Source: Stomorhina lunata (lineage: Eukaryota; Arthropoda; Insecta; Diptera; Rhiniidae). From it: DNA of 64,000 bases. Both the position numbers and the translations under genes were made by a program. The notes beneath the pieces were generated by a model, which searched no databases, was not told the DNA's origin, and was given only the letters and a program-made list of their open reading frames with translations. The DNA lies in the NCBI GenBank assembly GCA_933228675.1, contig OW121740.1:37209792-37273791 (forward strand). The letters run 5' to 3'. This document shows positions 17,282 through 21,339 of this stretch, piece after piece. The first letter of the stretch is position 1, and each line of letters starts with the position of its first letter.

Positions 17282-20200
17282 CTAGCTGGTTACGTTTTGT
17301 AACCGTTGCCATGCCATTGATGCAGTTCCTTTGAAACGCTCTAGCGGAACTATGCCATTAAGAAGCTGGGAACTGTTAGTCATCTGACAGACAACATATA
17401 TCTGAGTCTGATCTTACAGCAAGTTGAGGTAAATTTAATGTTATTAACATCTAGAATTCTACAAAGGAATTTTAGAGGCCTGATAAAAAGATATATGATG
17501 ACAAATCAGATTTTGGGGACTTTCGCCAACAATTTTTAAACAGTATTAGAAATAAGTAAAACAAGTTTTGGAAATTGAAAATATTACTATTATTTGCTTT
17601 AAATTAAACTATGTTAAAATCTGGAACTAATTACAATAAAATTTCACATTCCTAATCAAAAATAATAAAAAAAAAAATCTGAACTAGATAAAATAATAAA
17701 TAAATAAATAAATAAATAATTAAATAAATAAAAAAAAAAAAAAAATGTACTCACCTTACCGCCGAATTGTCTGTGTAGTCTAAGAAGGCAGCATACAGTA
17801 TTCTGTCGTCATGATGTAGAGATTGGTCAGAAGTCTGTAAAGAAAATATAAGTTATTAGAAATATAGTAATAAAAGATTTTTGAAAATTTTTACTTACCA
17901 TTTACTTGGTTTAAGTGTTAGTGGAAGGATCACACAAGCTTCATAATAGTGTCCTCCGTTTATAAAAATTTGAGGGGACCTGAAAAAAAAAGGTTGGGAT
18001 AATGAGTGTTTCAAATAAAACATAGGACAATTACATTAATATTAGGTTAAAACTTTTGGATTCGGCTTTATCGTTATCGGAAAAATATGTACTTGCAGGA
18101 AAAACCAATTGTTGGGTGGGAGCAGGAGAGAAGTTTTAGTTTAATATTAATCCAGATATAAACATATAATATAATAGCGCGTTAAACGAATTGTTCATAA
18201 TAAATCATAACAAAAAAAAAAATTAAAAACAAACTCACACTAAATGGAAACCAAAATTCAACATCTGGAATTATAAAATCGAACACAATAACTCTTACAA
18301 CATCAACATCAAAGGAAGAAACAAAAACAAGGTCCTCATCAAGCGCTAGAAACACCCTACAATCAGCTGGTAATCATATCAATACCAACACTGGCAAGAG
18401 TAATATAATTTTTTTATGCCCACCTCGGCTGCGAACGTAAGGCCAGTTACGCTTTCAAAAATCAATGGGCAGTAGTGGTGCTAACAGTACACAGGCTAAA
18501 GATTTACGTGAAATGTTAAATTCGAAGAAAAAAAAACCTTAGAACCAAGTAGAAATAATCGACAATGCAATAACAAACAAAAACAACTACGGCACAACAA
18601 TCACCTTTAGCAAGTTAAGTTATACAACCACAACAAAGCAAACTCCACCAACGTATTGCTAATAATGATAACCAACAGCAACAGTCTTTTGGCCCAAGAG
18701 CTATTCTAGGAGCTTCAAAACAGCAACAACACTCTAAAGAGTCCCAAAAAAAATCGGATGGGAAATCTCAACAACAACAACAGTTGCAAAAGCCTTCAGT
18801 AGCGACAGCCAAAGTTGAAAAATCTTCAACTGTTTCGAAACCACAACAAAGATTTAATTCCATACAAAATAATATTCAACAACAGCCGCAAGCTAAGTTA
18901 CTGCTGTCGTTCAGCCACAAGCCCAAACACCTGGTGTTAAGCCTGCAGCCGCCTTCACTAATTGGTTCCAGTTCGAATGATCCCATATACTGTTCCATTG
19001 AGCCCAAGCAACCCTCGCCACCACAACAGAGAAGCCAAAACCCCCAACAACGGGAACCCATGGCTTTGCCTCCCAATGCACAGGCGCCACCAGCAAGACT
19101 CTCATGTAATTGTATATCATTGGAAAATTTGGAGGGTATTAGTAAAGTACAAAGGGATTTGGCGACTTATGGTAACAATTTGTTGCAGAATTACAATCAA
19201 CAGCAGCAATATTATTTGGACATGTTGGGCTATATACAGCAACATCAACAGCAGCGCCAGCAGCAGCAGCAGTTGCCCTATAATAGTAATATGAATATCT
19301 ACCGAAGACCTGGTAGTCAAACGAGTCTCAGTCAAGTGGCATTTTCAGCTGGAGTTCCCCTGCCTGATCAATTCCAAAGGCGTAATTCACAACAAATGCA
19401 TTATGGTGGCTTTGGCTACAACAACTACACAAATCCCTATATAACAGCCCCCTGCTACCACAACTCCCACCTACAATCATCAGTTTAGCAATGCACCCAA
19501 AATAGATTACAGCGCTTTTCCCCATCATCAGTTCGGTAACACATCCCAAGAAATATGAATGCTATAGCTGTTATTCAATACTGTCGTTCCAAGAACTACC
19601 CAGCTCCCTGTTTCAATGCATTAAGGGTCAAATTTTCTCGTGACACATACTCGGGTAGTGCAAATGACATTATTTTCTTGACATATGAATAGGAGACTGA
19701 ATATTTGGCTAAATAGGCCTGTAAAAAGAGAGCCTTGGAAAAATCTAAATTACAAGAAAAGAAACACCTAATGCAAACGCCAAAAATATTTGTTGCTTGG
19801 TATGCTTACGGTACTCGAACCGACGAAGATTTAAGTTTTCGCAAAGGAGAACATTTGGAAATTTTAAATGATACACAGGGTGATTGGTGCTTGGCACGTA
19901 GTAAGAAGACTCGATAAGAAGGTTATATACCCTTCGATTAGGTTGCCTAATCAAAATCGATAGAAGCTGAACCTTGGTACTTACAGGAAATTTAACGTAT
20001 TGAAGCTGAAAAGAGATTGTTACTGCCAAAAAAAATGAGCATGGAGCATTATTTTTTTTTAATTGGAGACTGAGAGTCTGATACAGTAAAACACTATCGC
20101 ATTCTTTATAGCAATACGCGCCATATTCAGAACTCTCCAAGAACTGGTGGAGCACTATTCCAAGGATTCCGATGGTCTGTGTCTTAATTTATGCAAACCA

Positions 20201-21339
20201 TGTGTCCAGATTAAAAAGCCAGTCACAGAAGGAGTGTCACATCAAACTCGTGATCAATGGGAGATTGATAGAACGTCTCTTAAATTCGCACGAAAATTGG
20301 GCTCCGGATAATTTGGTGAGGTATGGGAGGGTCTTTTTTTTTTTTAACAATACTACTTTGGTAGCTATAAAGACTCTTAAATCAGGCGATGGATCCAAAA
20401 GACCTTTAGCAGAAGAAGCTCAAATCATAAAATAAAAACTCTGCCACAACAAATTCATACAATGGTATGCGGTATGTACAATTGAGGAACCAATTTGTAT
20501 TATAACCGAATTGATGAAGTCCAGTTCTATTCTGGAATATTTACAAGCTATGGCAGGTAAAGGTCGCCGTCTGAATATGCCGGTACTAATTGTTATGGCT
20601 GCGCAAATAGCTGCGGGTATGGCTTGTTTGGAATCACAAGATTATATTCACATACGTTTGGCTGCATGAAATGTGTTAGTGGCTGGTAACAATATTGTCA
20701 AAATTGCTGATTTTGGATTGGCACGACTGGTTAAAGAGGATGAATATGAAGCCTGCGATGGCGATAGATTCCCTATTAACTGCACGGCTCATGAAGCTGC
20801 AAACTATTACAAATTTTCAATTGAGTTTGACTTCTAAGGTTTAAGCATGTTACTTACTGAATTAATTACATATGGACGTGTTCCATGGCTGGGAATGACA
20901 AATACAGAGATAATTTCGAACACAATTTGAGCATGGTTATCGTATGCTTCAGCCTCCAAATTGCGGCTAAAGGCTTTGTGCTGTTTCCAAGCACACATAA
21001 ATCGCGAACTCCAAACATTGCGTCCTCTCTAACGACCACCACCACAGCAGTATCAGCTGCATAGAAAAGAAAATTTAAATTAAAAACACAAATAATTTTA
21101 ATAAAAAAAAAATGTATGTATCTTACCTTCTTCCTTCTAAATTTCCCAAAACAACATCGGCGTCATCTAAAAAAAAAAAAAAAAGGAAAAGGAAAATGTT
21201 ACAGATTAATAATTTTTTTTATCAACTTTAACAAATGCTTACCTTTGCGAAATACACGCGGTTTTTTTTTTGGTTTTGACGTTTCTCCTCCTCCTGTACC
21301 AAACACTGATGATAATATAGCGTTTTTTTTTTTAATCAT
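17282..21339 (-). other. Possible spliced antisense gene inside the retrotransposon
   Basis: The minus strand shows a chain of splice-like blocks. A is 21339-21243 (Met start, basic PKKKPRV, donor GTAAGC). B is 21166-21127 (T-rich acceptor, donor GTAAGA). C starts at 21056 (acceptor TATGCAG). D ends at 18239 (donor GTGAGT). E is 17979-17899 (T-rich acceptor, donor GTAAGT). F is 17834-17755 (TTTACAG, donor GTGAGT). G is 17372-17282, ending at a stop. Single frames stay open through A-B, D-E and F-G. The B-C and E-F joints do not keep frame, so the gene is either broken or partly miscalled. The Src-like copy interrupts it between C and D. PKKKPRV resembles a nuclear localisation signal. I recognise no domain; the function is unknown. 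Confidence 0.4.
18284..20980 (+). pseudogene. Decayed Src-family tyrosine kinase retrocopy carried in the LTR element
   Basis: An intronless copy of a non-receptor tyrosine kinase mRNA, closest to fly Src42A from memory. A Gln-rich part (open 18784-19488) is followed by the SH3 domain (19777-19917; KIFVAWYAY, TDEDLSFRKGEHLEILND, GDWCLARSKKTR). A damaged SH2 comes next (about 19960-20165), then the linker and kinase start (DQWEIDRTSLKF, about 20245). The kinase domain has VAIKTLK, YIH and ADFGLARL, ending near PPNC (about 20975). Damage seen: stops after the SH3, in the glycine loop and in the catalytic loop (LAA-stop-N), an SH2 deletion, several frameshifts, APE changed to AHE, and loss of the C-lobe end and tail. 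The kinase is dead. No poly(A) tract is visible at the 3' junction. The Gln-rich 5' part does not match short Src42A forms I know; it may be a longer isoform or a second source. The 5' boundary is approximate. Confidence 0.88.

What the first reader, a model, noticed from the sequence alone, without database searches (positions are those of the whole stretch)
18284..20980. A Src-family kinase mRNA captured inside a gypsy-type retrotransposon, between pol and the 3' LTR
Seen: SH3, damaged SH2 and kinase segments lie contiguous (no introns) on the + strand, wholly inside one LTR element with matched LTRs and a target duplication. Known: Rous sarcoma virus carries a host src at the equivalent place, and transduction of a recognisable host signalling gene by an insect LTR element is, to my knowledge, rarely if ever described. 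Inferred: the copy was acquired as spliced RNA by the element or its ancestor, and could once have been expressed from the LTR.
Basis: partly seen in the sequence, partly recalled or inferred. Interest (0 to 1): 0.92.

Follow-up and report, generated by a model that had tools for sequence, protein, structure and literature searches.

The report
Retrotransposon that hoards host gene messages
A jumping element in a fly genome carries a patchwork of spliced copies of the fly's own genes, among them a Src kinase, and sister elements carry other fly genes in the same place, so it looks as if this element family repeatedly picks up and overwrites host messenger RNAs.

Summary
The Src observation is real but only part of the story. 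The window holds a young gypsy-type LTR element (LTRs 1356/1356 identical, target duplication AGAA, open gag and pol). Between pol and the 3' LTR lies a spliced, broken Src42A copy lacking nine host introns. About half of the reported interval is not Src. It is a nested patchwork: Src42A 5'UTR [ gene Y | tapas [ Rcd6 ] tapas ] Src42A SH3-SH2-kinase-3'UTR. Loci matching all four genes were found in the same genome. A second copy on another contig shares cargo and stop codons.

Sister copies hold other host sequence in the same slot: 19 of 24 slots read carry identified host cargo; 13 matching host loci were located. In the three nested cargos tested, the inner piece is closer to its host gene than the outer. 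Ten host-host joins share 3-10 nt (mean 6.0; random 0.73). Best reading: a slot repeatedly overwritten by co-packaged spliced mRNAs through reverse-transcriptase template switching. The window's cargo shows no coding constraint. Single transductions are known (Rous src, maize Bs1, crocodilian ERVs). A fly family doing it serially was not found in nine capped literature searches.

The parts
9620..9623 (.). target site duplication AGAA, 5' copy, inside a 31-bp satellite array
9624..10979 (+). 5' LTR (TG...CA, 1356 bp)
   Evidence: identical to the 3' LTR
10984..11001 (+). primer-binding-site-like sequence TGGCGCCCAAC... just after the 5' LTR
   Evidence: read; that this is a lysine-type PBS is recalled, not tested
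11718..13235 (+). gag ORF (stop to stop, 505 codons)
   Evidence: Pfam Retrotrans_gag E 5e-8
13130..16537 (+). pol ORF (protease, RT, RNase H, integrase), overlapping gag in the -1 frame
   Evidence: Pfam RVT_1, RT_RNaseH, Integrase_H2C2, rve
16538..18155 (+). left anchor: stretch after pol shared by family members, ending where cargo begins; acceptor-like TTGCAG|GAAA at about 18098
18189..18330 (+). cargo: Src42A 5'UTR piece (82% to C11:69998659-69998795, some 400-530 nt upstream of the Src42A start codon)
18344..18462 (+). cargo: piece of unnamed gene Y (94% to C2:92800340-92800456)
18459..18952 (+). cargo: tapas/Tdrd7, first piece (89% to C11:90.88M, - strand)
18945..19448 (+). cargo: Rcd6 piece, innermost layer (94.7% to C11:56785736-56786242)
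19449..19774 (+). cargo: tapas, second piece, resuming at a tapas exon junction (86%)
19757..21088 (+). cargo: Src42A SH3, damaged SH2, kinase and part of 3'UTR; ten host exons joined, with stops, frame changes and deletions
21049..21470 (+). right anchor shared with sister copies that hold other cargo (its first 40 nt overlap the region still resembling Src42A 3'UTR)
21127..21166 (-). candidate antisense exon bounded by AG and GTAAG on the - strand
   Evidence: not shown to be transcribed
17899..17979 (-). candidate antisense exon bounded by CAG and GTAAGT on the - strand, alignable in several copies
   Evidence: not shown to be transcribed
21471..22826 (+). 3' LTR
22827..22830 (.). target site duplication AGAA, 3' copy

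Best explanation
This is one member of a Ty3/gypsy-type LTR family in a calyptrate fly whose stretch between pol and the 3' LTR acts as a cargo slot. Spliced host mRNAs are copied into the slot when the element's reverse transcriptase leaves the element RNA, copies a stretch of host mRNA and returns, each time at a few matching bases. Later switches overwrite the middle of earlier cargo, so layers nest. In the window a Src42A mRNA came first, then tapas inside it, then Rcd6 inside tapas, with a piece of gene Y at the 5' join. Shown: the pieces, matching host loci, intron loss in several cargos, microhomology at joins, shared cargo in separate copies, inner layers closer to host in the three nested cargos tested, and pairs of copies that share an older part and differ in the newer. 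Inferred: co-packaging of host mRNA, copy-choice during minus-strand synthesis, and the order of events. In the window and the C2 copy the cargo is a dead passenger.
For: Spliced RNA: nine Src42A introns absent; host exons lie apart but run on in the cargo for the zinc-finger cargo of L033, the carrier cargo of L040 and the MBOAT cargo of L047. Cargo belongs to the element: window and C2 copies share it, with 75 mismatches over 18063-21470 and common stops; four copies about 99.5% alike share another cargo. Family-wide: 19 of 24 slots read hold identified host cargo. Microhomology: ten host-host joins share 3,5,5,7,6,6,4,10,6,8 nt, mean 6.0, against 0.73 for random breakpoints; 0 of 200000 resamples reach it (lengths read by eye; test); an eleventh join of 7 nt was read later. 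Layers: differences from host at codon positions 1+2 are 7/336 in inner Rcd6, 35/327 in outer Src42A (p 3.8e-6) and 14/145 in outer tapas (p 4.5e-4); 4/606 in the inner gene of L033 and 17/304 in its outer gene (p 8e-6). For L040 the order rests on identity alone: inner 92-99%, outer 83-95%. Pairs: L055 holds a 568-codon TTI1 frame, while L047 keeps the same 5' TTI1 bit and then switches to an MBOAT gene after 10 shared nt; L041 and L036 share the left 203 nt of cargo and differ after it.
Against: Five of 24 slots (L038, L042, L043, L044, L050) were not identified; in L038 and L043 zinc-finger-like ORFs run antisense, which mRNA capture does not predict (Pfam support weak). The Src 5'UTR to gene Y join has about 13 unassigned nt and no clear match. 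In L040 the last piece lies upstream of the first piece in the host, so that cargo is not a simple A-B-A. The L036 cargo, gene Y and the Rcd6 piece match single unbroken host stretches, so they say nothing on splicing. Outer genes may be less constrained in the host, which would inflate their divergence; Src42A, strongly conserved, is the firmest comparison. Most genome searches did not complete, so host loci were sought for five cargos only (window, L033, L036, L040, L047). No RNA evidence exists here.
Confidence: 0.85

Rival explanations
1. A processed Src pseudogene made by a LINE inserted by chance into one element copy.
For: Intronless copy with stops.
Against: The same cargo with the same joins and shared stops lies in a second element copy on another contig, whose left flank is not the window's satellite; joins to three other host genes carry short matches; sister copies hold other host cargo in the same slot.
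Confidence: 0.03
2. A single ready-made chimeric transcript (trans-splicing or read-through between host genes) was captured once per subfamily.
For: One join, Rcd6 to tapas, falls at a tapas exon junction; the first-to-second-gene join in L033 lies next to an AG that could be an acceptor.
Against: Most other joins lie inside host stretches that run on past the join; the matching loci lie on different contigs in L033, L036, L040 and L047; inner pieces are younger than outer ones; the L055/L047 and L041/L036 pairs share the older part and differ in the newer.
Confidence: 0.07
3. The slot was filled by DNA-level gene conversion or recombination with processed copies elsewhere in the genome.
For: The C2 copy is itself uneven in pol (a 420-base block at 89% beside one at 99%), so recombination between copies may occur; single-stretch matches such as C10:22.62M cannot be told from retrocopies by intron loss.
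Against: The searches answered returned, beside element copies and repeats, no second match with the cargo's joins; counts by that tool are lower bounds.
Confidence: 0.05
4. The cargos are accessory genes kept because their proteins help the element, as env or an oncogene would.
For: Some copies keep long frames (counted stop to stop): 568 codons fusing zinc-finger gene and a second gene in L033, 868 in L036, 568 of TTI1 in L055; an acceptor-like TGCAG or GGCAG precedes the slot in the 8 copies whose left anchor reaches that point.
Against: Window cargo: of 75 differences between the two copies, the 46 in framed segments fall 13/13/20 on codon positions and stops are shared; the tapas-Rcd6 and tapas-Src joins are out of frame (read); the zinc-finger frame is open to full length in 1 of 4 near-identical copies; the cargos share no evident function.
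Confidence: 0.1

Closest known systems
Rous sarcoma virus v-src (recalled; no record fetched)
   Same: Host Src-family mRNA, spliced, between the replication genes and the 3' LTR, in sense orientation.
   Different: Here Src42A is broken in both copies seen, no env was found in the window, and the slot holds four host genes in nested layers.
Maize Bs1 LTR retroelement (passages of PMC13317346, and PMC7264820)
   Same: One LTR element carrying segments of three host genes.
   Different: Bs1 is a plant element reported to form a transcribed and translated chimeric gene. Here a fly family shows different cargo in different subfamilies and signs of overwriting.
Crocodilian ERVs with KIT-ligand and nectin3 (passages of PMC4299795)
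   Same: Host mRNA captured by an LTR element, in one case without loss of an ERV domain, in the other in place of env.
   Different: There one gene per lineage, with purifying selection reported. Here multi-gene patchworks, decayed cargo in the window, many genes in one family.
LTR-mediated retroposition in metazoans (Tan et al. 2016; not held; seen only as cited in passages of PMC8232201)
   Same: Spliced host RNA copied by an LTR element's reverse transcriptase, with LTRs beside the retrocopy.
   Different: As recalled, those are retrocopies associated with LTRs. Here host pieces ride inside copies that keep gag and pol and spread with them.
Bdelloid rotifer LTR elements with varied ORF3 (abstract of PMC5408684)
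   Same: A variable third frame in addition to gag and pol in animal LTR elements.
   Different: Those ORF3s are enzymatic or env-like genes shared among retroelements, not a changing series of local host mRNAs.
W-linked PxyMasc retrocopies of a moth that make silencing RNAs against the parent gene (PMC9674220; title and start of abstract in a search listing only)
   Same: Retrocopies of a host gene could act on that gene through small RNAs, the effect suggested in the novel case here.
   Different: No small RNA data exist here.

Membership tests
Ty3/gypsy-type LTR retrotransposon | Paired LTRs beginning TG and ending CA, with a short target duplication | tested here: met
Ty3/gypsy-type LTR retrotransposon | gag and pol with order protease, RT, RNase H, integrase | tested here: met
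   Pfam order in the pol ORF
Ty3/gypsy-type LTR retrotransposon | Position within a gypsy clade by RT phylogeny | not tested
   no tree was built
Errantivirus (insect endogenous retrovirus) | env gene after pol | tested here: not met
   one search lists no + strand ORF of 80 codons or more between the pol end and the cargo; the cargo itself is host-derived; no env profile was searched, and sister copies were not tested for env
Transducing retroelement (v-src type) | Spliced host mRNA inside the element | tested here: met
   nine introns absent
Transducing retroelement (v-src type) | Captured frame open and expressed | tested here: not met
   stops and frame changes in both copies; expression not testable
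Transducing retroelement (v-src type) | Cargo shared by separate insertions | tested here: met
   window and C2 copies
Multi-gene capturing element (Bs1 type) | Fragments of several host genes joined inside one LTR element | tested here: met
   four host genes in the window; two or three host loci in L033, L036, L040 and L047
Multi-gene capturing element (Bs1 type) | Hybrid frame that is transcribed and translated | not testable with these tools
   no RNA data; in the window the tapas-Rcd6 and tapas-Src joins are out of frame

The most novel reading that the evidence does not exclude
The family lives with a dedicated capture slot: its anchors favour reverse-transcriptase excursions onto spliced host mRNAs, so its copies form a library of fly messages that is overwritten layer upon layer. 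Because one captured gene, tapas, is a germline piRNA-pathway gene (recalled), small RNAs raised against the element could also hit the parental genes, giving the cargo an effect without any protein. A chain of antisense, AG- and GT-bounded exons in the two anchors may be what fixes the slot's place.
Probability: 0.35. Interest if true: 0.95.

Novelty: new variant of a known kind. Interest (0 to 1): 0.86.

Why it matters
Transduction of host genes by LTR elements is mostly known from single captures. Here one animal family offers many captures of different ages in one genome, with the host genes at hand for comparison. That makes the mechanism of retroviral-type gene capture (which mRNAs are packaged, where the enzyme switches, how often, how long cargo lasts) open to direct measurement, and it shows a route for joining pieces of unrelated genes in animals. 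If small RNAs against the element also reach the parental genes, it would link transposon cargo to the regulation of host genes.

Tried and rejected
Rejected: chance nested insertion, because the C2 copy shares the cargo; a single Src capture, because three other genes lie inside it; a hybrid protein in the window, because the 289-codon ORF at 18619-19488 passes the tapas-Rcd6 join in a window copy that lacks 4 nt present in the C2 copy just before it and the joins are out of frame in the host sequences. I first took the stretch before Src for an Src N-terminus; the homolog search named it Rcd6. Poly(A) docking at the right boundary: A-runs occur in several copies, but captured 3' ends at true poly(A) sites were not shown, so it stays an idea. 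Literature: nine searches listed no insect LTR family with serial host-mRNA cargo, judged from titles and starts of abstracts; the lists were capped in some (for example 15 of 67 papers, 10 of 27, 15 of 25), and only open-licence PMC papers are held. Names recalled rather than taken from a call: SCaMC for the EF-hand plus carrier cargo, oys for the MBOAT cargo, capicua for the HMG piece of L041 (Pfam below cut-off), importin alpha for the armadillo piece of L045, CCAR1 for the DBC1 domain, SMARCC for SWIRM-assoc_2, odd-paired for the Zic gene.
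Full report
What was given. The window lies in an unnamed 728-Mb genome. Protein hits place it among calyptrate flies: the best for the Rcd6 piece is Cochliomyia (76% over 58% of the query), for tapas Lucilia (75%).

The element. LTRs at 9624-10979 and 21471-22826 are identical over 1356 bases, flanked by AGAA in a 31-bp satellite. gag (11718-13235) and pol (13130-16537) are open, and pol carries protease, RT, RNase H and integrase domains. No + strand ORF of 80 codons or more lies between pol and the cargo, so no env was seen there. 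The insertion is recent.

The cargo in the window. Reading from the left: 18189-18330 matches the Src42A locus 400-530 nt upstream of the start codon, in the same unbroken host stretch (82%). 18344-18462 matches an unnamed gene at C2:92.80M (94%). 18459-18952 matches tapas/Tdrd7 (89%). 18945-19448 matches Rcd6 (94.7%). 19449-19774 is tapas again (86%). 19757-21088 is Src42A from SH3 to part of the 3'UTR. The kinase piece alone hits Src42A of many insects and Src-family structures.

It came from spliced RNA. The Src42A part aligns to ten host exons; with the 5'UTR piece the matches spread over about 173 kb of contig C11. Nine introns are absent, and the host splice signals at them were read. 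The tapas resumption begins at its exon junction. Gene Y and Rcd6 pieces match single stretches and say nothing on splicing.

It belongs to the element. A second copy at C2:54.02M carries the same cargo with the same joins, with 75 mismatches over 18063-21470. Its LTRs differ at 9 of 881 aligned bases over the part compared; its pol has two deletions and its 3' LTR is interrupted. Several stops in the Src part are common to both copies, so the kinase was dead before they split. Of the 75 differences, the 46 in framed segments fall 13/13/20 on codon positions, which shows no coding constraint. In the LTR search only these two copies matched the window's LTR closely (40 of 806 candidates scored).

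The slot in sister copies. A search with 20380-21470 returned 34 matches: the window, the C2 copy, Src42A exons and other family copies. Sister copies share gag-pol or its end and the stretch up to between about 17590 and 18155 ('left anchor') and the stretch from 21049 or about 21270 on ('right anchor'), but hold other sequence between. I read 24 slots (window, C2, L031-L038, L040-L050, L053-L055). Both anchors are visible in the stretch read in 16 of them, about 2.0 to 3.2 kb apart, and none of the 16 is empty. In 19 of 24 the cargo is identified as host-derived. Twelve are identified through matching host loci or sharing with a copy so identified: window, C2, L031-L034, L036, L037, L040, L041, L047, L055. 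Seven rest on Pfam or on sharing with a copy identified by Pfam: L035 Xrn1, L045 armadillo, L046 and L048 Vps41, L049 DBC1, L053 VPS13 and SWIRM-assoc_2, L054 Rotatin. Not identified: L038, L042, L043, L044, L050; L038 and L043 have weak zinc-finger-like ORFs in antisense.

Host loci of other cargos. L033 (four copies): a gene at C10:23.27M, then a zinc-finger gene at C1:185.01M in several exons, then the first gene again. L040: a locus at C10:40.5M, then an EF-hand mitochondrial carrier gene at C7:2.8M in seven pieces, then a piece from just upstream of the first. L036: pieces of 91 and 92 nt from C7:107.23M and C1:3.80M, then one unbroken stretch of C10:22.62M; these three loci are unnamed and not shown to be genes. 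L047: a TTI1 piece from C1:168.97M, then an MBOAT gene in seven exons at C11:3.43M. With Src42A, gene Y, tapas and Rcd6 this makes 13 located host loci.

Joins. Host-host joins in the window, L033, L036, L040 and L047 share 3 to 10 bases between the two host sequences. Ten of them have a mean of 6.0 against 0.73 for random breakpoints in nine host sequences, some with introns, and none of 200000 resamples reached it. The lengths were read by eye. One further join of 7 bases was read later. One join, Src 5'UTR to gene Y, is unresolved with about 13 unassigned bases.

Layers. At codon positions 1 and 2 the inner Rcd6 differs from its host gene at 7 of 336 sites, outer Src42A (three exons counted) at 35 of 327 and outer tapas (one segment) at 14 of 145; in L033 the inner gene differs at 4 of 606 and the outer at 17 of 304. 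In L040 the inner carrier is 92-99% identical to its host gene and the outer locus 83-95%. Two pairs of copies show a common older part with different newer cargo: L055 and L047 (TTI1 kept, or followed by the MBOAT gene), and L036 and L041. Together these favour serial overwriting.

How it likely works. During minus-strand synthesis in a particle that also contains host mRNA, the enzyme leaves the element RNA or older cargo at a short match, copies part of the mRNA, and returns at another short match. The slot between pol and the right anchor is where such excursions survive, since gag and pol must stay intact to spread without help. That step is inferred; co-packaging was not observed.

What it is like and what it is not. 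In place and orientation it resembles v-src (recalled), and in mixing several host genes it resembles Bs1 of maize (passages). Crocodilian ERVs captured KIT-ligand and nectin3 mRNAs (passages). A review notes that such transduction by LTR elements has occasionally been reported in animals and plants (passages of PMC6431247). It is not an oncogene-bearing virus in any tested sense: the kinase frame is broken in both copies and no env was found. Nine literature searches with partly capped lists showed no insect LTR family with serial host cargo; papers outside the open-licence set were not seen.

Open points. A chain of - strand exons bounded by AG and GT lies in both anchors and can be aligned among copies. 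A + strand acceptor-like TGCAG or GGCAG stands before the slot in the 8 copies whose left anchor reaches that point; in L031-L034 the cargo begins before it. Whether either is used is unknown.

Noticed in passing
window 17899-17979, 21127-21166 and about 21240-21330, - strand: Candidate antisense spliced gene of the element family: AG- and GTAAG-bounded exons in both anchors, alignable among copies, whose frames seem to join through three exons in the window copy; in several copies the cargo truncates the second exon.
   Followed up: partly
window 18090-18099 and the same place in C2, L036, L037, L038, L040, L041, L049: Splice-acceptor-like TGCAG or GGCAG just before the cargo in the 8 copies whose left anchor reaches that point, as for an env-type subgenomic mRNA.
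   Followed up: partly
L038, L042, L043 (C12:9.15-9.18M): Family copies on a small contig with weak zinc-finger-like ORFs in antisense orientation within the slot (L038, L043) and other long antisense ORFs in L042, one looking reverse-transcriptase-like by eye; not identified.
   Followed up: no
window 1-7213, 8340-9623, 22827-23042: Long 31-bp satellite arrays; the element is inserted within one of them.
   Followed up: no
window 29708-30937: Exon of a Zic-type zinc-finger gene (odd-paired by recall), Pfam zf_ZIC, + strand.
   Followed up: no
C2:54.02M copy (L006, L007): Pol of this copy has two deletions, and one 420-base block is 89% while the next is 99% identical to the window copy, suggesting recombination between element copies; its 3' LTR is broken by another repeat.
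   Followed up: partly
L033 6327-8031: A 568-codon frame (stop to stop) fuses a zinc-finger gene in frame to the end of another host gene; open in full in 1 of 4 near-identical copies.
   Followed up: partly
L048 371-1440: Mariner-type transposase-like ORFs nested upstream of the cargo (by eye).
   Followed up: no
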